A stretch of DNA of 45,537 nucleotides from a virus. The stretch's first letter is position 1. Each line of letters begins with the position of its first letter. Made by a program: the position numbers and the translations under genes. The notes under the pieces are model-generated. The model had not been told where the DNA came from. It searched no databases and saw only the letters and a list, made by a program, of their open reading frames with translations. The stretch is from IMG/VR virus record IMGVR_UViG_3300048591_000441, positions 1-45,537 of that record; one strand, 5' to 3'. This document shows, piece by piece, positions 1 to 45,537 of the stretch.

Positions 1-105
1 CGCACGAGGTCGGGATGTATGAGGTTTGCTGGATCATTTTTGCCTGCCCAGAATGATGGCCCGCCAAAAGCAACGACCCCTTGATAATACAACCAGGCCA
101 GGGCT
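1..105. repeat. Left copy of 105-bp terminal direct repeat
   Basis: Bases 1-105 are identical to 45433-45537. An open reading frame on the minus strand continues across the join, so the two ends are contiguous in a circular map or the molecule is terminally redundant. A short assembly overlap and a real short terminal repeat cannot be told apart from sequence alone. Confidence 0.97.
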
Positions 106-368
106 GACCTCAACTTCTTGAGCCAGCTCTGTTTGGTTCCCGCCTCGATCAGGCGCAGCATGTTGTTGAGAAAGACATGGTCAGCGATTGCCTTGTAATC
201 AAGGCCGGCATCGGCTGGATAGGTATACATGAAGTCGTGAATGCAACAGGCAGGCTTGATGTCGAGGCCGAGCAGGGAATCGGGAACAAGATCCCGATGC
301 CAGCCTGGGCGTCCACACTCACAACCTCTTGCTTCCGCGTACCCGTCAGGAGCCCAAAGTTCCGGCAT
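1..368 (-). CDS. Phospholipase A2-like phage protein (crosses the genome join)
   Basis: Reading from ATG at 366-368 on the minus strand, the frame stays open through base 1 and continues at 45432 to a TGA at 45396-45398, giving 134 residues. Residues 41-48 read CCIHDFMY, with a His44-Asp45 pair, followed by an Asp63-containing helix (ADHVFLNN). This resembles the Cys-Cys-x-x-His-Asp catalytic helix of phospholipase A2 and a phage family that shares it. A second Cys pair (C16, C18) lies near the N-terminus. The start follows a GGTGGGG ribosome site. If active it would hydrolyse phospholipids and could assist lysis or envelope passage. That is inference, because phage members of this family are mostly uncharacterised. 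It is convergent with the dehydrogenase gene and their 3' ends overlap. Confidence 0.65.
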   Translation of the reverse strand, partial: MPELWAPDGYAEARGCECGRPGWHRDLVPDSLLGLDIKPACCIHDFMYTYPADAGLDYKAIADHVFLNNMLRLIEAGTKQSWLKKLRSALAWLYYQGVVAFGGPSFWAGKNDPANLIHPDLV

Positions 369-15039: not shown

Positions 15040-15603
15040 ATGGCCATGGAGATCGTGCATCGTGATCTTTCGTCACTAATCCCCTACGCGAACAACCCTC
15101 GGGTCAACGATCACGCGGTTGATCAGATGATCGCGGTCATCGAAGAATTCGGGTTCAAAATTCCGATGCTCGCTCGATCGAATGGCGAGATCGTCGATGG
15201 GCATTTGCGATTCAAAGCCGCGACCAAGATGGGATTGCCCGAGGTCCCGGTGATTCTCGTCGATGATTGGTCTGAGGCTCAGATCAAAGCCGCTCGCCTC
15301 GTCATCAACAAATCAGTGTCATGGGCTGAGTGGGACAATCATAAACTCAAAGATGAGTTTGCTGCATTGCAGGCACTCGACTTTGATCTGAACTTCACCG
15401 GCTTCAATCAATCCGAGCGCGATCTCATTATGAAAGGCTGGGAGTCTGATCACGAGGGCCTGAGCAAGATCAAAGAGAACGAGGACGGGATTCCCGTGAA
15501 GATCACTCTGACCGTGCCGCAGGCAATGAAGCAGGAGATCAAGGATTGGCTAGAGGGCATGATCGAAGATAGCGAGTATGTCCATGACATCAAACTTTCC
15601 TAA
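15040..15603 (+). CDS. Stand-alone ParB/Srx-fold protein next to DpdA
   Basis: The product is 187 residues. The N-terminal 90 residues have the ParB/sulfiredoxin nuclease-like fold: DLSSLIPYANNPR, a helix with HAVDQMIAVIEEFG, then the key NGEIVDGHLRFKAA motif and LVINKS. In many phages this domain is fused to a DNA methyltransferase. Here it stands alone and its C-terminal 90 residues are unrelated. It overlaps the dpdA start by 26 bases, so the two are probably co-translated. Inference: it may bind or guide DNA for the transglycosylase, in the same way that the fused versions help DNA-modifying enzymes. Confidence 0.8.
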   Translation: MAMEIVHRDLSSLIPYANNPRVNDHAVDQMIAVIEEFGFKIPMLARSNGEIVDGHLRFKAATKMGLPEVPVILVDDWSEAQIKAARLVINKSVSWAEWDNHKLKDEFAALQALDFDLNFTGFNQSERDLIMKGWESDHEGLSKIKENEDGIPVKITLTVPQAMKQEIKDWLEGMIEDSEYVHDIKLS

Positions 15604-16444
15604 GCTGAACCTTCTCTGCGCTTATCCATATTTCAAGCAGCCGGTCATCGAAGTGATGAAGAGCCGCACCTTTCAGGAGAACACCAACGTGCTCGTGGAC
15701 TCTGGCGCGTTCACGGCATGGAAGGCCGGCAAGCCGATTCGCCTGCAAGACTATCTGAGGTTTCTCGATTCACTTCCGTATCAGCCCTTTGGCTATTTCA
15801 TGCTGGATGTCATCGGGCAGCCGGATCAGACCCGCGCGAACTACTCGCAGATGTATGAACTGGGCTATCGACCCATCCCGATTTTCACGCGCGGCGAGGA
15901 CTTCGACGAACTCGAAAACTACTACGAGCGCACCGACTATGTTGGGGTGGGCGGGCTCGTGAAGACCCCAGGTGCTCAAGGATTCGTCAAGCGGATCATG
16001 CAGAAGATCAATGGGCGCAAGGTTCATCTTCTTGGCTTTACGAATCAGGTCCTTCTGAAAGCAACCCGCCCATACTCTGTCGATGCCTCCTCATGGTCGG
16101 CTGCGCTCACCTATGCTCGGCTGGCTATCTATGTCGGCAATGGTCGATGGATCTCACTCGGCAAGAAGGATTTTCAGAAGCAACCCAAGCCGGAAGTTCT
16201 TGCAGCGCTTTCACGTTATGACGTAGATTACCTCGATCTTGCCAAACAAAAAAACTGGCGTAACAGCGGCAAAGGTGATGTTGCAATCGAGCATCTAACC
16301 TTTCGATCGTTCATCCGTTACGCGACCGACATCGAGCGGGCTATCGGCACGAAATACTTTCTGGCCATCGCCTCTGACTGGCAAGCAAAGCTGGCTTTGG
16401 ACGCCTACCTGTGGGCGAAAGAAAAATATGGAGGTTCGACATGA
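15578..16444 (+). CDS. dpdA: DpdA, DNA 7-deazaguanine transglycosylase
   Basis: The product is 288 residues. DpdA proteins are DNA-acting relatives of tRNA-guanine transglycosylase that swap guanine bases in DNA for preQ0 or a derivative. Matching features are DSGAF with Asp41, GYFMLDVIGQP, a VGVGGL motif (residues 122-127), HLLGF (150-154) and YSVDASSW with Asp169. The two aspartates fit the general acid/base and nucleophile positions of the family. The cysteine zinc site of tRNA enzymes is not evident, as expected for the shorter phage forms. It lies directly upstream of queC, queD, queE and folE, whose products supply its substrate. A second ATG six bases on is possible. Confidence 0.88.
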   Translation: MSMTSNFPKLNLLCAYPYFKQPVIEVMKSRTFQENTNVLVDSGAFTAWKAGKPIRLQDYLRFLDSLPYQPFGYFMLDVIGQPDQTRANYSQMYELGYRPIPIFTRGEDFDELENYYERTDYVGVGGLVKTPGAQGFVKRIMQKINGRKVHLLGFTNQVLLKATRPYSVDASSWSAALTYARLAIYVGNGRWISLGKKDFQKQPKPEVLAALSRYDVDYLDLAKQKNWRNSGKGDVAIEHLTFRSFIRYATDIERAIGTKYFLAIASDWQAKLALDAYLWAKEKYGGST

Positions 16445-17133
16445 AGCGTCTTGTATTGCTAAGCGGCGGCATGGACTCATCAACGGTTCTGGGCTATGTG
16501 CGGTCGATCGCTCTCAAGGGCGAAGAGATCGCGGCCCTCTCATTCGAGTATGGCAGCAAGCACAATGAAGCGGAGTGGGAAGCGGCTCAGAACGTGGCAC
16601 ATTTCTATGGTGTGGAGATCGACCGCGTGCATCTCGACTTCATCGCGCGTCTGTTCAAGTCTGACCTGCTGGCTTCCGGAGAGGAGGTCCCGGAGGGTCA
16701 CTATGCCGACGACTCCATGAAAAAAACCGTGGTCCCTTTCCGCAACGGGATCATGCTTGCGATCGCGGCTGGCTATGCAGAGAGCAATGGCTATCAGGAA
16801 ATCTACCTAGCAAACCATGCCGGGGATCACACGATCTACCCCGACTGTCGGCCTGAGTTCACGGAAGCGATGCACATGGCTGTGAAGCATGGGACCTGGG
16901 CGGGCATCGAATTCGTTGCGCCGTTCATGAATCTCAGCAAGGCGACGATCTGCAAGCTCGGGGTGTCGCTCGGGGTCCCGCTCGATCTCACGTGGTCATG
17001 TTATAAAGGCGGGGATGTGCATTGCGGGGTCTGTGGCACCTGCCATGAGCGCAGAGAGGCTTTCATGCTCGCGGGCGTCGACGACCCTACCGAGTATCTT
17101 GAAACGCCTCCCTTGCCTGCTGTGGGGGCCTGA
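16441..17133 (+). CDS. queC: QueC, 7-cyano-7-deazaguanine (preQ0) synthase
   Basis: The product is 230 residues, from ATG 16441 with GGAGG upstream. QueC converts 7-carboxy-7-deazaguanine to preQ0 with ATP and ammonia. The N-terminal LLSGGMDSST is the PP-loop ATP pyrophosphatase signature. FEYGSKHN and NGIMLAIAAGYAE are typical. Cys187, Cys195, Cys198 and Cys201 (in CGVCGTC) make the structural zinc site. There is no fused amidotransferase domain, unlike the Gat-QueC proteins that make archaeosine-type bases in some phages. That suggests the end product inserted is preQ0 itself. The start overlaps the dpdA stop by four bases. Confidence 0.95.
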   Translation: MKRLVLLSGGMDSSTVLGYVRSIALKGEEIAALSFEYGSKHNEAEWEAAQNVAHFYGVEIDRVHLDFIARLFKSDLLASGEEVPEGHYADDSMKKTVVPFRNGIMLAIAAGYAESNGYQEIYLANHAGDHTIYPDCRPEFTEAMHMAVKHGTWAGIEFVAPFMNLSKATICKLGVSLGVPLDLTWSCYKGGDVHCGVCGTCHERREAFMLAGVDDPTEYLETPPLPAVGA

Positions 17134-17136
17134 GCC

Positions 17137-17574
17137 ATGAAAATTTCAATCATGAGGACTCTGGAGTTTGATGCTGCTCATCGGGTGATGCACCATGAGA
17201 GCAAATGCGCCAACATGCATGGTCACAGATACAAGGTCGAGATCCACGCCCGCGCTGCGGAACTCGATCCGCTCGGTCGCATCATCGACTTCTCTGCGAT
17301 CAAAGCCCGCATCGGCGGGTGGATAGATACCCATTGGGATCATACGACGATCCTTCATGAGAACGATCCATCTGTCAGAGCGTGGCAGTCTGATCTCATT
17401 CCCTTCAACAAACCCATCTATCTGATGCCCGAGAACCCGACCGCCGAGAACATGGCCAAGTATCTTCTCGCCAAATGCAATGACGAGCTGATGCTCGGGA
17501 CAGCGATCGAGGTCTACAGGGTTGTTATCTGGGAAACCCCGAACTGCAAAGCGGAGGCGGCGCTGCTGATATGA
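17137..17574 (+). CDS. queD: QueD, 6-carboxy-tetrahydropterin synthase
   Basis: The product is 145 residues. QueD turns dihydroneopterin triphosphate into 6-carboxy-5,6,7,8-tetrahydropterin, the second step of the preQ0 route. Visible hallmarks are FDAAHR with His15, CANMHGHRY (Cys24 nucleophile, His28 and His30 zinc ligands), DFSAIK, the WDHTTIL catalytic region and NPTAENMA. Length is normal for the family. The gene starts three bases after the queC stop and overlaps queE by four bases. Confidence 0.95.
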   Translation: MKISIMRTLEFDAAHRVMHHESKCANMHGHRYKVEIHARAAELDPLGRIIDFSAIKARIGGWIDTHWDHTTILHENDPSVRAWQSDLIPFNKPIYLMPENPTAENMAKYLLAKCNDELMLGTAIEVYRVVIWETPNCKAEAALLI

Positions 17575-18233
17575 AGACCTATCGAGTCAAAGAGATCTTT
17601 GGTCCAACGCTCCAGGGTGAAGGCACTCATGCTGGTCGTGCGGTGATCTTCCTTCGGTTTGCTGGTTGCAATAAGTGGAACGGTCGCAAGGAGAGTAAGC
17701 CAAACTCGGTCTGTTACTACTGCGACACGGACTTCACAGGTGGCGAGAAGATGACAGCCGTGGAGATCGAACAGGCTATAGTTGATCTCGCGGAGAGGCA
17801 TGGACACGTCTATGCCCTTGGCAATTACCATGTGGTCATCTCGGGCGGGGAGCCGATGATGCAGCTCGACGAAGGGCTCGCGGAACTCCTGAGCCGTCAG
17901 CATTTTCTGCATCTTGAAACCAACGGCTCCATCCCGATCTCCCCTCTGATCAATCGCCATCTCAAGCATGTGACCGTTTCCCCGAAACAGCCATGGTCGG
18001 AAACGAAAGTGCGGTATGCAGAAGCGCTCAAGCTTCTGTTCCCATACCTGGGCAGCATGGGCTCGCTCGTGTCGCTCGATTCATTCCATCAGTTCAAGGC
18101 TGGCGAAATTTTCATTCAGCCAATCCTTGACGAAACGTATGAGGCAAACCTTAAGGGCGCTATCGGGGAATGTCTTAAGAACCCGCATGTGCGTCTCTCA
18201 CTTCAGCAACACAAAATTCTGGGGCTTCAATGA
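17571..18233 (+). CDS. queE: QueE, 7-carboxy-7-deazaguanine synthase (radical SAM)
   Basis: The product is 220 residues. QueE is a radical S-adenosylmethionine enzyme that rearranges 6-carboxytetrahydropterin to 7-carboxy-7-deazaguanine. FGPTLQGEG is the family start motif. The iron-sulfur cluster cysteines are Cys33, Cys48 and Cys51, a C-x14-C-x2-C spacing used by one group of QueE enzymes rather than the usual radical SAM C-x3-C-x2-C. VISGGEP is the SAM-binding GGE motif. ETNGS and VSPK follow in order. Overlaps with queD and folE by four bases each indicate a tightly coupled operon. Confidence 0.95.
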   Translation: MKTYRVKEIFGPTLQGEGTHAGRAVIFLRFAGCNKWNGRKESKPNSVCYYCDTDFTGGEKMTAVEIEQAIVDLAERHGHVYALGNYHVVISGGEPMMQLDEGLAELLSRQHFLHLETNGSIPISPLINRHLKHVTVSPKQPWSETKVRYAEALKLLFPYLGSMGSLVSLDSFHQFKAGEIFIQPILDETYEANLKGAIGECLKNPHVRLSLQQHKILGLQ

Positions 18234-18814
18234 TGACGATGAATCGACGCGAGCAGGTAGAAGAGCACATCAGAGGGATCATGCAACTGTTTGATCTTGA
18301 TCTGAACGATGAGTCGCTGCGCGACACTCCGAAGCGGGTTGCGAAAATGTTCGAGGCCGACCTGTTCTGGGGTTTGAAGGAGGAGCACATCCCTTCGATG
18401 ACGACCCAGGAGAGCAAGGGCTATAACGAAATGCTCATAGAGACGAACATCACCGTCAACAGTCTTTGCGAGCATCATCTGGTTCCAATCATCGGATCTG
18501 CCCACATCGCATACATCCCGAACGATCGGATCCTTGGGCTCTCGAAGTTCAATCGCATAGTCGATTACTTTTCGCGCAGGCCGCAGGTTCAGGAAAAGCT
18601 AACGAAGAACATCAAAGACTTTCTGGTCAAGGTCTTGAACACCGAAGACGTAGCCGTGGTTATCGACGCAAGCCACATGTGCGTTAGAATGAGAGGGATA
18701 CGTGACCGCGCATCCATCACCCGCACCAACATGCTGGGAGGTCGATTCATGGCGGGCGAAGTGAGAGCCGAGCTGTTTGCCTCTCTGCCCAAGCCTTCGG
18801 ACCTCCAGCTATGA
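18230..18814 (+). CDS. folE: GTP cyclohydrolase I (FolE)
   Basis: The product is 194 residues. FolE opens the GTP ring and forms dihydroneopterin triphosphate, the first step toward preQ0. Diagnostic segments are DTPKRVAKMF, the zinc and catalytic motif SLCEHHLVP (Cys80, His82, His83), GLSKFNRIVDYF, the RPQVQEKLT stretch, and ASHMCVRMRGIRD with the third zinc ligand. It completes a GTP-to-preQ0 pathway with queD, queE and queC. Gene order is the reverse of pathway order. The start overlaps the queE stop by four bases; a second ATG at 18233 is also possible. Confidence 0.96.
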   Translation: MMTMNRREQVEEHIRGIMQLFDLDLNDESLRDTPKRVAKMFEADLFWGLKEEHIPSMTTQESKGYNEMLIETNITVNSLCEHHLVPIIGSAHIAYIPNDRILGLSKFNRIVDYFSRRPQVQEKLTKNIKDFLVKVLNTEDVAVVIDASHMCVRMRGIRDRASITRTNMLGGRFMAGEVRAELFASLPKPSDLQL

Positions 18815-40277: not shown

Positions 40278-40780
40278 TGACATTCGTTGATTGGCCTTAT
40301 GTTCGTCGGGTGCTGGCTCCGTCTGAGATCCCGACAGGAAACCTTTTGCTGATGGCTATCTTCAGGATTGAATCGAGCTACGACCCGAACGCAGTTCGCT
40401 TTGAGCCTGATTTTCAGTATGTCTGGAATGTGGAAGCTCACGCGAAGATGCTCGGGATCACACAGAAGACCGAGCGCATCATGCAGCAGACTTCCTGGGG
40501 ACTCGGTCAGATAATGGGCGGCACGGCTCGCTGGCTCGGATACAACGGGCCTCTGACCGGGCTCCTCGATGTCGAGACGAACATAGTTTTCTCCGAGGCA
40601 TATCTGAGTCGGCTTCTCCAGCGATATAATAACAATATCGAGAAAGCGATCGCATCATATCGCAAAGGCAATGCGAGACATTGCAGTGATGAAGTCTGTT
40701 CGACCGATGACTATGTTGCGATGGTCATGGCCGAGTACAACATGGAAGTCAAAAACTCAGCCTGGGAAAGGAGCAGCTAG
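40277..40780 (+). CDS. Lytic transglycosylase (SLT domain)
   Basis: The product is 167 residues from ATG 40277, overlapping the previous stop. It cleaves the glycan strands of peptidoglycan. [13 protein letters not shown] contains the catalytic glutamate (Glu32), [19 protein letters not shown] is the family motif that places the second conserved Gly-Gln region, and [25 protein letters not shown] with Tyr is the third. It has no signal peptide. It could serve as the lysis enzyme, or as the virion muralytic enzyme, and since no other endolysin is recognised it may be both. Confidence 0.88.
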
Positions 40781-40781
40781 C

Positions 40782-41825
40782 ATGGGCTTGATAAATATCG
40801 GTGGGGAAAATCAAGGGCCTCCTGGACCGCAAGGCCCGGCTGGTCCTCAAGGTCCTCAAGGTCCGCAAGGTGAGCAGGGAGAACAAGGAGAGCAGGGACC
40901 GGCTGGCCCTCAAGGCGATGCGGGACCTCAAGGGGCTCAGGGCGAGCAAGGTCCTCAAGGGGAGCAGGGAGAAACTGGTCCTGCTGGCCCAGGGCTTGCC
41001 GCAGGTGGCACGACAGGACAGATCGCATCAAAAGCGAGCGACGATGACTTTGATGTCGAGTGGATCGACATACCTTCATCTTCTCCTGACCCGGCCACAG
41101 AATATATTGTTATGAAAGACTGGATCAACTCAGTTGAAACGAATCCTCTCGGGGATTTTTCAAGCAGCAGTGCGTTTCAGCTTATAGATTACGCCTTCAA
41201 AGACGGCGCTATTGGAATGCATAGCATGTATTCCAACGCTGCTAACGGCTATGGGAGGTGGACTGAAACTATATCAAACAACCTTGCTTTCAGTTTGCAT
41301 CTGGATGCCTATGGGGCCGGAGCGGGCGCGTTTGCTGGAGTGATCTGGAGCATTGAATACAAGTTCAAATTTTATAATAACAACCTCCCACCTGGGAATG
41401 AACTCTACGCTTTCATGGGTCTTGGCGAGAGGTTGAGCCATAACTCGAACGCTGTCAGTTTTCAAACTGGTCTACACTTGAATGGATCTCTCCAGCCAGC
41501 GAATGGCATTTGGTATATACGACGCAGAGACGGTGGGGTCGTTGGATCGGAATTCACTGAAGTTGAAGCAATAAGCACAAACTGGCGAACATATAAACTG
41601 GAATGTGAAGTCAAACCTGCTGGCGCTGGCCTTATCTGGCGACACTACTTCCAAGGCGCTCTTGTCACGACCTACGAAACGACGAATGCCAATGTTGGAG
41701 CTGGTTTTAAATGGATCAATGCCTATATCCAGGTAGATTCAGCAGGACCGACTCCTCCAGGAACGTTTAGAGGTCTGACTCTTGATTATGTGAAAATGAC
41801 AATGAAACGGAGCAGGACATACTAA
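40782..41825 (+). CDS. Collagen-like tail fibre protein
   Basis: The product is 347 residues from ATG 40782; longer in-frame starts lie inside the lysozyme gene. Residues about 10-76 are uninterrupted Gly-x-y collagen triplets ([18 protein letters not shown] and similar) that form a triple helix. They are followed by a linker ([10 protein letters not shown]) found in many fibre stems and a beta-rich C-terminal domain with jelly-roll features ([13 protein letters not shown], then [20 protein letters not shown]). It is probably a receptor-binding or trimerising fibre. The codon-level repeats (CCTCAAGG) are prone to slippage and recombination. Confidence 0.88.
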
Positions 41826-42200: not shown

Positions 42201-42551
42201 ATGCAAAGTCAGCTTCTCTCGATCATCAAAGGCACCGATCGGACGATCAAGGTTTTGCTCAAGACGGCGAACGGCGCACCGTTCAGCCTTGAGAATGCGA
42301 CCGCCATCAAGGCTATCTTTCTTGGCTCGGGTGATGAACTTGTCGAGCTGACCCTCGCAGCGGACAAGGTGTCTGTGGTGGGCGATGCCGCTCGCGGGGA
42401 AATCGAGATCACGATGGACACAGAGGACACTGAAGATCTCAAAGACGGCGAGCGCCTGTCGTGGGAAGTCGAGATCATTCGCTCAAGTCGAACCTATGTT
42501 GTGCAATTCCCTGAAACCCTGGACGTAAGGCAGCGCCTCAGCCAGGGGTAG
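42201..42551 (+). CDS. Small beta-structured protein (BppU-like candidate)
   Basis: The product is 116 residues. The pattern SIIKGTDRTIKVLLKTANGAPFSLENATAIKAIFL, in pieces, then RGEIEITMDTEDTEDLKDGERLSWEVEII, resembles the N-terminal domain of upper baseplate or fibre-attachment proteins (BppU type), in which Asn-Gly-x-Pro-Phe-Ser-Leu is common. It is the last gene before a tandem terminator, so it closes the structural operon. Confidence 0.6.
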   Translation: MQSQLLSIIKGTDRTIKVLLKTANGAPFSLENATAIKAIFLGSGDELVELTLAADKVSVVGDAARGEIEITMDTEDTEDLKDGERLSWEVEIIRSSRTYVVQFPETLDVRQRLSQG

Positions 42552-42565
42552 GGTATAATGAGGGG

Positions 42566-42592
42566 ACTCCTGCCTTTGGGTGGGGTTTTTTC
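42566..42592 (+). terminator. First of two tandem terminators (weaker)
   Basis: ACTCCTGCC and GGTGGGGT can pair with one or two mismatches or bulges (about 42566-42586) and are followed by TTTTTT. It precedes the stronger hairpin and lies just downstream of the structural operon's last gene. Confidence 0.45.
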
Positions 42593-42601
42593 CGCTTCTC
42601 G

Positions 42602-42639
42602 ACCACCGCTGGCATCCCGCTCGGCGGTGGTTTTTTTTT
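42602..42639 (+). terminator. Rho-independent terminator ending the structural operon
   Basis: ACCACCGC (42602-42609) pairs with GCGGTGGT (42624-42631), loop 14 bases, followed by nine T residues. It separates tail genes from the 42652-45454 module. The next ATG is only 13 bases later, so that module relies on read-through, an internal promoter or antitermination. Confidence 0.85.
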
Positions 42640-42651
42640 CTTGGGGGAATC

Positions 42652-43086
42652 ATGTTCAAGCATACCATCCTTCGGATCGAGCCCGGCAAGCGCATCATTG
42701 ATCTCACTGAGAGGGTTCAGACGGCCGTCAGGACTTTGAATCTTCGGTCAGGGCTCTGCAATGTCTATTCGAGACACACAACTCTAGGGCTGCGGATCTA
42801 TGAGTTCGAGCCCTTGCTGATGAGTGACACGATGCGAAAGCTTGAGGACTTTGCGCCTCGATACGATCGGTATGCCCACGACGACCTCGATTGCAGGGAC
42901 GTTCCTTTCGACGAGCCGGTGAATGGTCATAGCCACATCAAGAGCCTTCTGGTAAATACAAGTGAAACGATACCTGTTCTTGACAACATGCTTCAACTCG
43001 GGCGCTGGCAGCGTCTGCTCGCGTTCGAGCTTGATGATCCGAGAGGGCGGGAAATAATGATTAGCCTCGTGGGGGAATTCGTATAA
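42652..43086 (+). CDS. YjbQ/UPF0047-family protein
   Basis: The product is 144 residues from ATG 42652 (MFKHTILRI), with GGGGGAAT upstream. The family motif is clear: VYSRHTTLGLRIYE, the acidic HDDLDCRDVPFDEPVNGHSHIKSLLV region with conserved His, then LQLGRWQRLLAFELDDPRGREIM and the terminal GEF. YjbQ proteins are widespread trimeric or hexameric proteins; a weak thiamine-phosphate synthase activity has been described for the E. coli member and the physiological role is unclear. It starts the module whose other genes make and transfer a polyol phosphate. It overlaps the next gene by one base. Confidence 0.9.
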   Translation: MFKHTILRIEPGKRIIDLTERVQTAVRTLNLRSGLCNVYSRHTTLGLRIYEFEPLLMSDTMRKLEDFAPRYDRYAHDDLDCRDVPFDEPVNGHSHIKSLLVNTSETIPVLDNMLQLGRWQRLLAFELDDPRGREIMISLVGEFV

Positions 43087-44072
43087 TGAGCAAGCGTGTG
43101 CCGGTGGCTTTCTTTGTAAACAACCATGGGTATATTTCTCACTTCCTCCCATTGATCGAACGCCTCCCCGAGATCCACCCGATCATCATCACCACGGTCA
43201 AGGAAACCGCGATCTACGCAAAGCAGATCCTTGGCCTGGAAGCCGTATCAGTCCTGCGCGACGAGCATCTATGGCAGGAGGTGAGACGCCAAGGGATCCT
43301 CAATGTCATTTCATGCTATCAGAAAATGCAGTCAGGGGATTGGCGGGCGCTCAACACAATCCAAATTTTCCACGGCGTCTCATTCAAAGGTCCCGATCTT
43401 GCGAACTGGAAGCCCGAGCGCTGGCAGCATCTCATGATTCAGGGAGAGCATTTCTGGGAGCCCTATCGCACGAGATACCCTGCATTTGTGGATCGAATGA
43501 AGCGGACATCATTCACGCGAGCCTATTGTTATGAAGATGTCCCCGAGTGGAACAAGAAGGCTCCCGTGCTATATATGCCATCGCATCGGGACTCTGGGCT
43601 CCTATCGCTGCGAGAGAACATCAGGCTGATGATAAGCCTTGGGCTCGATGTCATCGTAAAGCTTCACCCGATAAATCATTTGCACGAGGCTTTCATGCAA
43701 GGGGTTTATCAGCTTTTCAGGCACACCGAGCGGGCGCAGCTTATCACTCACGATGACCCTCGCTACTTTCGATACGATGAACTGATGAAGCAATCGAGCT
43801 GTCTCGTTTCGGATTTCAGTTCGGTCGTCTGCGAATACACCTTGCTCGATCGCCCGATCGTGATTCTGAGAGGCGGACCCGACAAGGCCATGCGGCACAA
43901 CGCCCGCGACAACCGACACCTGGAGCCCAGCCTCTTTCATGTCGGTGAAGATCGCAGGGTCGATCGCACGATCCATGACGCGATCATTGACTACAAGCCG
44001 GGGCAGTATCCTGATCTCTATATCAAGGATGGCCAGGACATCTGTCAGGCCATCAGAGAGGCATTGCGATGA
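43086..44072 (+). CDS. CDP-glycerol/ribitol phosphotransferase-like protein (Glyphos_transf family)
   Basis: The product is 328 residues. It resembles the CDP-glycerol glycerophosphotransferase family (TagB/TagF/TarL) that adds glycerol- or ribitol-phosphate to teichoic acids and capsules. The family cues are in the C-terminal half: VKLHPINH (residues 191-198), then LITHDDPRYFRYDELMKQSSCLVSDFSSV, in two parts, with SDFSS at 242-246, and EYTLLDRPIVI. Aromatic and His-rich stretches in the N-terminal half (NTIQIFHGVSFKGPDLANW) fit the GT-B fold. No membrane segment is evident. The acceptor is unknown. It overlaps neighbours by one and four bases. Confidence 0.85.
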   Translation: MSKRVPVAFFVNNHGYISHFLPLIERLPEIHPIIITTVKETAIYAKQILGLEAVSVLRDEHLWQEVRRQGILNVISCYQKMQSGDWRALNTIQIFHGVSFKGPDLANWKPERWQHLMIQGEHFWEPYRTRYPAFVDRMKRTSFTRAYCYEDVPEWNKKAPVLYMPSHRDSGLLSLRENIRLMISLGLDVIVKLHPINHLHEAFMQGVYQLFRHTERAQLITHDDPRYFRYDELMKQSSCLVSDFSSVVCEYTLLDRPIVILRGGPDKAMRHNARDNRHLEPSLFHVGEDRRVDRTIHDAIIDYKPGQYPDLYIKDGQDICQAIREALR

Positions 44073-44260
44073 TCAGCACAGAGGATCGGGACGCATCGCT
44101 TGCTCTCCTGAATTCGCTGGATGAGTCAAGGCGCTATCTGAAAATGCTGAGCGATGCCTGGGAGAAACGACTCGAACATATCACCATCAGTCTCCGTGAC
44201 GATCCGATCAAGCGGATCAATGAGCGCATTCGTTGCGATTGGGAGGCAATGCACAGATGA
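44069..44260 (+). CDS. Small helical protein in the polyol-phosphate module
   Basis: The product is 63 residues, charged and helical. It starts four bases inside the phosphotransferase gene and its stop overlaps the cytidylyltransferase start by four bases. These overlaps show co-translation. No motif. It might be an adaptor or regulator of the module. Confidence 0.6.
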   Translation: MISTEDRDASLALLNSLDESRRYLKMLSDAWEKRLEHITISLRDDPIKRINERIRCDWEAMHR

Positions 44261-44970
44261 ACATAACCGCTCTTGTTCTAGCGGCTGGCGCCGGATCGAG
44301 GTTCGGCTGTGACAAGATGGAGATTCAGATCCATGGGCTGAGGCCTTGGGAGATTGTTGAGCAGAGGCTGCGACCTCTTGTCAATTCGTTGGTGGTTATT
44401 GGAAAGGATATTCCGGGTGGGGAATCAAGGCGGGAAAGTGTTCTGCGGGGGCTCGCCCATGTGAAAACTGATCGTGTTATCATTGCAGAGGGTGCGAGGT
44501 TCTTACCGTCAACCTCTGATTACGAACTCGCCATTCGATCCGAGGGGTCAGCCGTGGCCTTCGGATCACCTTCCATCAACTCTGCTGTGCTCAAAGTCTC
44601 CGCATCATTCACGCCGATCCCTCGTCATCTGATGAATATTATCCACACGCCACAGGTATTTGATACGGGGCTGCTTCGTCAAGTGCTCGATCGTTATGGG
44701 CACCTCTCTGATGGGGATGAATGGTCTTTGATGGCGACCCTTAACCAATGGGACTGTCGGGTGATACCGGGGTCCTGGCGGACCGGGCTTAAGCTGACGT
44801 ATCCAGGGGATCTCGAACTGATGGAGATGGCTTTCGATGCTGGAGCAACAACACAGGATAGTCGTGGTGGGCGCGGGGTCCGACATCGCGCAGGCGCTTC
44901 TCATGCGGATCAGATCGGGACCCTGGCTGAAAGCTGCGAAGGTAAAAGCATTCAGCAGCGCGGAGCTTGA
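44257..44970 (+). CDS. IspD/TarI-type cytidylyltransferase (predicted CDP-polyol synthase)
   Basis: The product is 237 residues from ATG 44257. It fits the IspD/TarI family that couples a polyol phosphate to CMP to give CDP-ribitol, CDP-methylerythritol or similar. Features in order are ALVLAAGAGSRFG (residues 5-17), GGESRRESVLRGL, VIIAEGARFL where canonical enzymes have HDAARP, IHTPQVFD, DGDEWSLM and LKLTYPGDLELMEM. The family's usual end falls near residue 194. The last 43 residues (after AFDAG) are read from the 5' end of the next gene in another frame and look non-native. The adjoining dehydrogenase and phosphotransferase favour ribitol or another polyol over isoprenoid synthesis. Confidence 0.85.
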   Translation: MNITALVLAAGAGSRFGCDKMEIQIHGLRPWEIVEQRLRPLVNSLVVIGKDIPGGESRRESVLRGLAHVKTDRVIIAEGARFLPSTSDYELAIRSEGSAVAFGSPSINSAVLKVSASFTPIPRHLMNIIHTPQVFDTGLLRQVLDRYGHLSDGDEWSLMATLNQWDCRVIPGSWRTGLKLTYPGDLELMEMAFDAGATTQDSRGGRGVRHRAGASHADQIGTLAESCEGKSIQQRGA

Positions 44971-45454
44971 TGTCACCAACCAAAGCCAGATGACGAGGAT
45001 AACGATGGCGAGGCCCGAGACTCTTATCGTGTTCGCGGGAGTCATCAAACCGGAAGCTGTCACGGGCGGGTCTGTGAGTGCATGGCATCGACAGATCAAT
45101 GTCAATCTCCTCGGATCCTACAATTGCGTGCAAGCCGCTCTCTCAGTGAATCCCAGATGCCGGATCATTCTGATCGGATCATCGGCGGCGCGGAAGGCCA
45201 GGGCAACCTGGAGCGCATACTGCGCATCGAAAGCCGGGCTCACGATGTTCGTCGAGTGCATGATCAAGGAAGGGGTTGATGCGTGGTGTTTGAACATAGG
45301 GCGAACGGCAAGCAAAATGCGCCGGGGTCTTTTCCCTGATGAGGACCAGGGTGCTCTGATGCAGCCCGATGTCGTCGCAAATGAGATCGTTCAGATCATG
45401 CTGAATCGGAGAGTCGATCGGATATCCTGGCTCGCACGAGGTCGGGATGTATGA
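44837..45454 (+). CDS. Short-chain dehydrogenase of the CDP-ribitol capsule type
   Basis: The product is 205 residues. It has the Rossmann start IVVVGAGSDIA (residues 8-18), catalytic Ser115/Ser116 in IGSSAARK and Tyr128-x3-Lys132 in YCASK. The C-terminal RTASKMRRGLFPDE resembles the ribulose-5-phosphate reductase domain of Acs1/Bcs1, which makes ribitol-5-phosphate for CDP-ribitol. Its ATG is preceded by GGAGATGGCTTTCG and lies inside the cytidylyltransferase gene; the two overlap by 134 bases. Together the two products correspond to the two halves of one Acs1-like enzyme. Confidence 0.85.
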   Translation: MLEQQHRIVVVGAGSDIAQALLMRIRSGPWLKAAKVKAFSSAELDVTNQSQMTRITMARPETLIVFAGVIKPEAVTGGSVSAWHRQINVNLLGSYNCVQAALSVNPRCRIILIGSSAARKARATWSAYCASKAGLTMFVECMIKEGVDAWCLNIGRTASKMRRGLFPDEDQGALMQPDVVANEIVQIMLNRRVDRISWLARGRDV

Positions 45455-45537
45455 GGTTTGCTGGATCATTTTTGCCTGCCCAGAATGATGGCCCGCCAAA
45501 AGCAACGACCCCTTGATAATACAACCAGGCCAGGGCT
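45396..45537 (-). CDS. 3' end of the phospholipase A2-like gene (part continuing from base 1)
   Basis: This is the end of the gene described at 1-368. Bases 45433-45537 are the repeated copy and 45396-45432 hold the last codons, ending in TGA at 45396-45398 (read on the minus strand). It overlaps the dehydrogenase gene's 3' end by 59 bases in antisense orientation. Confidence 0.65.
   Translation of the reverse strand, partial: ALAWLYYQGVVAFGGPSFWAGKNDPANLIHPDLVRARISDRLSDSA
45433..45537. repeat. Right copy of 105-bp terminal direct repeat
   Basis: Identical to bases 1-105. It contains the last codons of the dehydrogenase gene (stop at 45452-45454) and part of the phospholipase-like gene. Confidence 0.97.

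What the first reader, a model, noticed from the sequence alone, without database searches (positions are those of the whole stretch)
42652..45454. A phage-borne polyol-phosphate synthesis and transfer module
Five consecutive, mutually overlapping genes follow the structural operon's terminator: YjbQ-like, TagF/TarL-like phosphotransferase, a 63-residue protein, IspD/TarI-like cytidylyltransferase and a dehydrogenase of the ribulose-5-phosphate reductase type. Established knowledge: reductase plus cytidylyltransferase convert ribulose 5-phosphate to CDP-ribitol (Acs1/Bcs1 of Haemophilus capsules), and TarL/Bcs3-type enzymes polymerise or transfer ribitol phosphate. Inference: the phage makes its own activated polyol phosphate and decorates a host surface polymer (blocking superinfection), its own virion, or another acceptor. 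I know of no described phage system with this combination.
Basis: partly seen in the sequence, partly recalled or inferred. Interest (0 to 1): 0.85.

Follow-up and report, generated by a model that had tools for sequence, protein, structure and literature searches.

The report
Phage module for activated polyol phosphate
A complete phage genome carries a conserved set of enzymes that appears to make an activated sugar-alcohol phosphate and attach it to something, probably the surface sugars of its host; the same four enzymes sit together in one bacterium's surface-polysaccharide gene cluster, which also ties the poorly understood protein family YjbQ to this kind of pathway.

Summary
The five genes are real and lie where stated. 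The window is a complete circular phage genome (exact 105-bp end repeat). The module keeps its place in four related records, at 82-93% (three) and 48-64% (one) protein identity, under purifying selection: not host contamination. The 63-residue gene is absent from the distant relative.

Transferase: PF04464 above cut-off; Foldseek's best hit is TagF with CDP-glycerol.

Cytidylyltransferase: neither IspD nor TarI. It forms a separate clade (support 100/99) with phage YerA41's IspD-SDR fusion and a gene of an unnamed gammaproteobacterium, G260.

G260 holds PF04464, this cytidylyltransferase, the SDR and YjbQ in one ABC-transporter surface-polysaccharide locus and has its own housekeeping IspD.

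Not established: that the polyol is ribitol (grouping with TarI is rejected), or the acceptor. Phages YerA41 and SP-15 carry comparable genes linked to DNA hypermodification, and this phage has 7-deazaguanine DNA-modification genes, so DNA remains a rival acceptor. Verdict: new variant of a known kind; chemistry largely supported, details not.

The parts
42548..42640 (+). Intergenic element before the module: GTAGGGTATAATGAGGG (TATAAT-containing) followed by two terminator-like hairpins with T runs
   Evidence: The 17-mer occurs once in the window and its pattern is kept in L008; also seen in L003; terminators
42652..43086 (+). YjbQ / UPF0047 protein (144 aa), long form with insert RDVPxDEPVNGHSHIK
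   Evidence: PF01894 102 bits, TIGR00149 89.6 (cut-off 67.75); 50% identical in L008; a homologue lies beside the SDR in G260
43086..44072 (+). PF04464-type CDP-polyol phosphotransferase (328 aa, GT-B-like)
   Evidence: PF04464 41.9 bits; motifs IFHGVSFKG, KLHP, SDFSSVVCEY invariant in the phages; Foldseek best hit TagF + CDP-glycerol 3l7k E 1e-6 on a low-confidence model
44069..44260 (+). 63-aa protein of unknown function; not essential to the module
   Evidence: No family above cut-off; 82-84% identical in L002-L004, absent in L008
44257..44970 (+). Compact IspD/TarI-superfamily cytidylyltransferase with IIAEGAR in place of HDxARP
   Evidence: PF01128 42 bits, TIGR00453 62.5 of 181 needed; clade with YerA41 and G260 proteins 100/99; nucleotidyltransferase motifs kept
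44837..45454 (+). Short-chain dehydrogenase/reductase (205 aa), proposed polyol-phosphate-forming reductase
   Evidence: PF00106 60.3 bits; GAGSDIA, SS and YC[AS][SA]K kept; best cellular relatives lie next to a cytidylyltransferase

Best explanation
The module is a short CDP-polyol pathway plus its transferase. Inferred steps: the SDR reduces a ketose or aldose phosphate with NAD(P)H to a polyol phosphate; the compact cytidylyltransferase activates it with CTP to a CDP-polyol; the PF04464 enzyme transfers the polyol phosphate to an acceptor. YjbQ carries out an unidentified step of the same pathway. The most likely acceptor is a glycan of the host surface (LPS, O-antigen or capsule), which would change the receptor during infection and reduce loss of progeny or superinfection. 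Shown here: the families, retained catalytic motifs, purifying selection, conserved position in a phage lineage, and the co-location of four homologues in a cellular ABC-transporter polysaccharide locus. Inferred: every substrate, the acceptor and the benefit. The polyol is not known; ribitol is possible but not favoured by the sequence.
For: Families above Pfam cut-offs. Same gene order in four related phage records; dN/dS 0.04-0.19 against L003. G260 locus L063: Wzm-Wzt-PF04464-cytidylyltransferase-SDR-YjbQ, all on one strand, near a glycosyltransferase and a WbpM-like protein. G260 keeps a separate housekeeping IspD and none of the other 60 genomes of its genus sampled has a match of that strength, so the compact form is accessory. 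In G350 the related SDR sits beside a CTP_transf_like (TagD-type) protein and near PF04464 proteins; in G423 another SDR sits beside an IspD-like protein; in cyanobacterial G927 an IspD-SDR fusion is followed by PF04464. Fold comparison favours TagF bound to CDP-glycerol.
Against: No substrate was tested. The module lacks an obvious membrane protein or exporter. The acceptor could be DNA or virion protein (see rivals). The PF04464 profile covers only about a third of the protein and both AlphaFold models are weak (pLDDT 54 and 43). The host is unknown, so it is not known whether it has such a surface polymer. Only one cellular locus with all four genes was found.
Confidence: 0.5

Rival explanations
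1. The same chemistry serves DNA hypermodification: the polyol phosphate is put on phage DNA to resist host nucleases.
For: YerA41 has an IspD-SDR fusion of the same cytidylyltransferase clade in a cluster ascribed to its bulky thymidine modification (PMC7354516, PMC9023294); its 184 repeat mass equals a tetritol phosphate residue, 184.014 (my inference). SP-15 has a CDP-glycerol glycerophosphotransferase in its base-modification cluster (PMC5977210). This phage encodes a 7-deazaguanine DNA-modification set.
Against: The module lies at the far end of the tail genes, about 24 kb from the 7-deazaguanine genes; the phage DNA was sequenced and assembled from metagenomes, unlike that of YerA41; no thymidine hydroxymethylase or base-sugar transferase was recognised among the genes scanned (not every gene was scanned); the cellular four-gene set is in a polysaccharide locus.
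Confidence: 0.15
2. The module decorates the virion itself, for example the collagen-like fibre protein encoded just upstream.
For: A collagen-repeat protein lies at 40671-41825 with a related one at the same place in L003 and L008; the module follows the tail genes directly.
Against: No direct link; collagen-like phage proteins are common without such modules (general knowledge); the module is separated from the tail genes by a terminator; the cellular counterpart is a polysaccharide locus.
Confidence: 0.17
3. The cytidylyltransferase is a true IspD that boosts host isoprenoid synthesis and the neighbours are unrelated passengers.
For: NCBIfam's ispD model scores higher (62.5 bits) than its ribitol-5-phosphate model (13 bits), and the best PDB hits are IspD.
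Against: 62.5 bits is far below the 181-bit cut-off; joining true IspD is rejected (AU p 0.004); HDxARP is replaced by EGAR; G260 has a separate housekeeping IspD; constant linkage with SDR and PF04464.
Confidence: 0.05
4. The pathway is specifically CDP-ribitol synthesis and ribitol phosphate transfer, as in Haemophilus Acs1/Bcs1 and Bcs3 (a narrower form of the best explanation).
For: Same domain pair and order as the IspD-SDR fusions; CDP-ribitol is the best known product of such pairs (established knowledge; papers found, such as PMC10299916, were not read in full).
Against: TarI and the cyanobacterial IspD-SDR fusions form a different clade (97/92), and joining it is rejected (AU p 0.005); long branches make this test imperfect. 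No Haemophilus Acs1/Bcs1 sequence was compared.
Confidence: 0.25

Closest known systems
Acs1/Bcs1-type IspD-SDR enzymes with a PF04464 transferase (Haemophilus capsules; fused relatives in cyanobacteria L091, L092, L099)
   Same: Cytidylyltransferase followed by SDR, associated with PF04464; surface polymer context in Haemophilus
   Different: Separate genes here, compact cytidylyltransferase of another clade, EGAR instead of HDxARP, YjbQ added, on a phage. Haemophilus proteins themselves were not compared
Unnamed gammaproteobacterium G260, polysaccharide locus (L063)
   Same: PF04464, compact cytidylyltransferase, SDR and YjbQ together; 30-39% identity to the window for the last three
   Different: Different gene order, 714-aa transferase, ABC transporter and glycosyltransferase present, on a 205-kb bacterial contig
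Yersinia phages YerA41 and GN1
   Same: Phage-borne cytidylyltransferase of the same clade with an SDR (clade tested for YerA41)
   Different: Fused protein, large myovirus, KpsC-like transferases instead of a detectable PF04464 protein, no YjbQ in the stretch read; ascribed to DNA modification
Bacillus phage SP-15 gene 151
   Same: Phage-borne CDP-glycerol:poly(glycerophosphate) glycerophosphotransferase (PMC5977210)
   Different: In a DNA-base modification cluster with UDP-sugar genes; no INPHARED phage record matched this transferase at E 1e-3 (presence of SP-15 in that collection was not checked)

Membership tests
PF04464 CDP-polyol phosphotransferases | Profile score above Pfam gathering score | tested here: met
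   41.9 bits against 22.1, profile 191-291 of 367 only
PF04464 CDP-polyol phosphotransferases | HG...K, K-x-HP and DxSS motifs | tested here: met
   IFHGVSFKG, KLHP, SDFSSV invariant in phages; KxHP and DxSS shared with L063, L064, L090. That these are the family's catalytic motifs is from general knowledge
PF04464 CDP-polyol phosphotransferases | TagF-like fold | tested here: inconclusive
   Best Foldseek hit 3l7k, E 1e-6, TM 0.38, on a model of pLDDT 54; polysialyltransferase is a close second
IspD (MEP pathway) | NCBIfam ispD cut-off and grouping with known IspD | tested here: not met
   62.5 of 181.3 bits; common clade rejected, p 0.004
TarI (ribitol-5-phosphate cytidylyltransferase) | NCBIfam model cut-off and grouping with solved TarI sequences | tested here: not met
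   13.3 of 166 bits; common clade rejected, p 0.0005
IspD/TarI superfamily | PF01128 score and nucleotidyltransferase motifs | tested here: met
   42.2 of 27 bits; GxGxRFGxxK, GGxxR, TPQ, KxT kept
Acs1/Bcs1 CDP-ribitol synthases | NADPH-dependent ribulose-5-phosphate reduction and CDP-ribitol formation | not testable with these tools
   Needs enzyme assay
Acs1/Bcs1 CDP-ribitol synthases | Sequence relationship to the Haemophilus proteins | not tested
   No Haemophilus sequence was obtained; only cyanobacterial fusions and YerA41 were compared
Classical SDR | Rossmann glycine motif, catalytic Ser and YxxxK | tested here: met
   Score 60.3 of 26.6; SS and YxxxK kept, glycine motif atypical GAGSDIA
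UPF0047/YjbQ | TIGR00149 and PF01894 cut-offs | tested here: met
   89.6 of 67.75 and 102 of 27 bits
Phage DNA hypermodification cluster | Linkage to DNA-modification genes and modified virion DNA | tested here: inconclusive
   Phage has 7-deazaguanine genes at 15578-18814 but not linked to the module; DNA chemistry not testable here

The most novel reading that the evidence does not exclude
Long-form YjbQ (UPF0047) is a dedicated catalytic step of a CDP-polyol pathway, giving a function to a widespread orphan family, and the phage/YerA41/G260 cytidylyltransferases are a new substrate class (for example making a CDP-tetritol rather than CDP-ribitol) used by phages to coat host glycans or their own DNA.
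Probability: 0.3. Interest if true: 0.82.

Novelty: new variant of a known kind. Interest (0 to 1): 0.64.

Why it matters
If right, a phage brings a complete small pathway for an activated polyol phosphate with its transferase, instead of a single serotype-converting enzyme. It would give a testable function to the YjbQ family, whose true role is unsettled, and define a third branch of the IspD/TarI enzymes. It would also link surface decoration and DNA decoration as two possible uses of one chemistry in phages.

Tried and rejected
Host contamination: rejected (105-bp end repeat, same position in relatives). True IspD and TarI assignment: both rejected on the tree. INPHARED and PLSDB searches with the transferase and the cytidylyltransferase: no matches. 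Genome scan with the transferase: nothing; 399 Pseudomonadota genomes gave only distant PF04464 proteins. Eight viral scans found only the same four records. AlphaFold of the cytidylyltransferase was too poor to use (pLDDT 43). L066 and L090 were left out of the final tree as long branches; the first tree with them gave the same five-member clade. Cellular YjbQ relatives found by scan (L019-L028) have no match to the other module genes beside them by tblastn; three are in one reading frame with an FMN_dh domain, not followed up. Paper searches for CDP-ribitol in viral auxiliary metabolism found nothing; only open-licence papers were searchable.

Full report
Observation. All five genes are present at the stated place. 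Pfam assigns UPF0047 (102 bits), Glyphos_transf PF04464 (41.9, cut-off 22.1), IspD PF01128 (42.2, cut-off 27) and adh_short (60.3) to four of them; the 63-residue protein has no family. A strong terminator (12-pair stem with T run, z -4.5) precedes the module, together with a TATAAT-containing element, GTAGGGTATAATGAGGG, that is unique in the window and also found at this place in L003 and L008.

Phage origin. The window is a whole IMG/VR record with an exact 105-bp repeat at its ends, so it is most simply a complete circular assembly of about 45.4 kb. It has a terminase, portal, head protease, major head protein, tail sheath, tape measure and baseplate genes. In L003 the DNA runs on from the module into the sequence that begins the window. 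The module sits between the tail genes and the opposite-strand genes in three close relatives (82-93% identity) and in L008 (48-64%). NG86 dN/dS against L003 is 0.073 (YjbQ), 0.036 (transferase), 0.053 (63 aa), 0.13 (non-overlapping part of the cytidylyltransferase) and 0.076 (SDR). The 63-aa gene is missing in L008. Contamination is excluded.

Transferase. Only the C-terminal part scores against PF04464, but the motifs IFHGVSFKG, KLHP and SDFSSVVCEY are invariant in the phages and correspond to the HG, KxHP and DYSSV stretches of TagF-like enzymes (the last seen; the first two from knowledge of the family). A low-confidence AlphaFold model (pLDDT 54) still finds TagF with CDP-glycerol first (E 1e-6) and a CDP-bound polysialyltransferase second. 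No similar protein was found in 50,697 phage or 72,556 plasmid records, and 399 Pseudomonadota genomes gave only distant relatives.

Cytidylyltransferase. It lacks a stretch of residues before the GGxxR motif that IspD and TarI have, and reads IIAEGAR where they have HDxARP. NCBIfam: ispD model 62.5 bits (181 needed), ribitol-5-phosphate model 13 (166 needed). In a maximum-likelihood tree it forms a clade (100/99) with the N-terminal domain of a YerA41 protein and with a protein of genome G260; TarI groups with cyanobacterial IspD-SDR fusions (97/92). Constraining the phage sequences to join IspD, or TarI plus fusions, or TarI alone is rejected (AU p 0.004, 0.005, 0.0005). Branches are long, so this is strong but not final.

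SDR and cellular counterparts. The best SDR relative among 399 Pseudomonadota genomes is in G260 (130 bits), far ahead of ordinary SDRs. Its surroundings (L063, on a 205-kb contig) read, on one strand: ABC-2 permease, ABC ATPase, a 714-aa PF04464 protein, the compact cytidylyltransferase, the SDR, a UPF0047 protein, then a 299-aa protein and a GT2-like glycosyltransferase, with a WbpM-like protein beyond on the other strand (the last two are my reading of the sequence). So four of the five phage genes have homologues together in a surface-polysaccharide locus, in another order and at 30-39% identity for three of them. G260 also has its own housekeeping IspD, and none of the 60 other genomes of its genus sampled has a comparable match. 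In G350 a related SDR sits beside a TagD-type CTP_transf_like protein with PF04464 proteins nearby; in G423 an SDR sits beside another IspD-like protein. The common theme is an SDR feeding a cytidylyltransferase and a PF04464 transferase.

Mechanism. Most likely: the SDR makes a polyol phosphate, the cytidylyltransferase activates it, the PF04464 enzyme transfers it; YjbQ does an unknown step. That chemistry I hold at about 0.75. The host surface as acceptor is inferred from the G260 locus; I give the whole statement 0.5. Substrates and acceptor are not shown.

Rivals. YerA41 carries a fused cytidylyltransferase-SDR, and GN1 a homologue of it, which the YerA41 authors place in the biosynthesis of sugar-modified nucleotides (PMC7354516); YerA41 thymidine carries about 1 kDa in steps of 184 (PMC9023294). 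A tetritol phosphate residue weighs 184.014; this match is mine and untested. SP-15 gene 151 is a CDP-glycerol glycerophosphotransferase in a base-modification cluster (PMC5977210). The present phage has its own DNA-modification genes: a TGT-like protein, QueC, a QueD-like protein (my reading of the sequence), QueE and GTP cyclohydrolase I at 15578-18814, but 24 kb away. DNA as acceptor is kept at 0.15, virion protein at 0.17.

Known versus new. The parts are known families. A single glycerol-phosphate cytidylyltransferase occurs in phage CRP-6 (PMC6918029). I found no report of a phage with cytidylyltransferase, reductase, PF04464 transferase and YjbQ together, within an open-licence library. 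It is a new variant of a known kind; the YjbQ link is the most unexpected part.

Noticed in passing
window 15040-18814 (+): 7-deazaguanine DNA-modification cluster: ParB_N-like, TGT/DpdA-like, QueC, QueD-like, QueE, GTP cyclohydrolase I, just upstream of the terminase.
   Followed up: partly
window 40671-41825 (+): Collagen-repeat protein after a transglycosylase gene at the end of the tail operon; related collagen-like proteins at the same place in L003 and L008.
   Followed up: no
L062 7041-8408 (YerA41): IspD-SDR fusion in the T-hypermodified phage YerA41; the published 184 repeat mass equals a tetritol phosphate residue, suggesting a polyol phosphate chain on thymidine. Speculative.
   Followed up: partly
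L019 6624-8408, L020 6756-8384, L023 6846-8384: YjbQ/UPF0047 in one reading frame with an N-terminal FMN_dh domain in three bacterial genomes, a possible clue to YjbQ function.
   Followed up: no
window 1-368 and 45396-45537 (-), L003 8287-8691 (-): Protein with a CCIHDFMY stretch resembling a phospholipase A2 motif, running across the window's ends; seen by eye only.
   Followed up: no
L091 751-2115, L092 1501-2871, L099 736-2121: IspD-SDR fusions in small cyanobacterial genomes grouping with TarI; in L091 followed by a PF04464 protein.
   Followed up: partly
window 42548-42564 (+): Conserved noncoding TATAAT-containing element before the module, unique in the genome; may be its promoter.
   Followed up: partly
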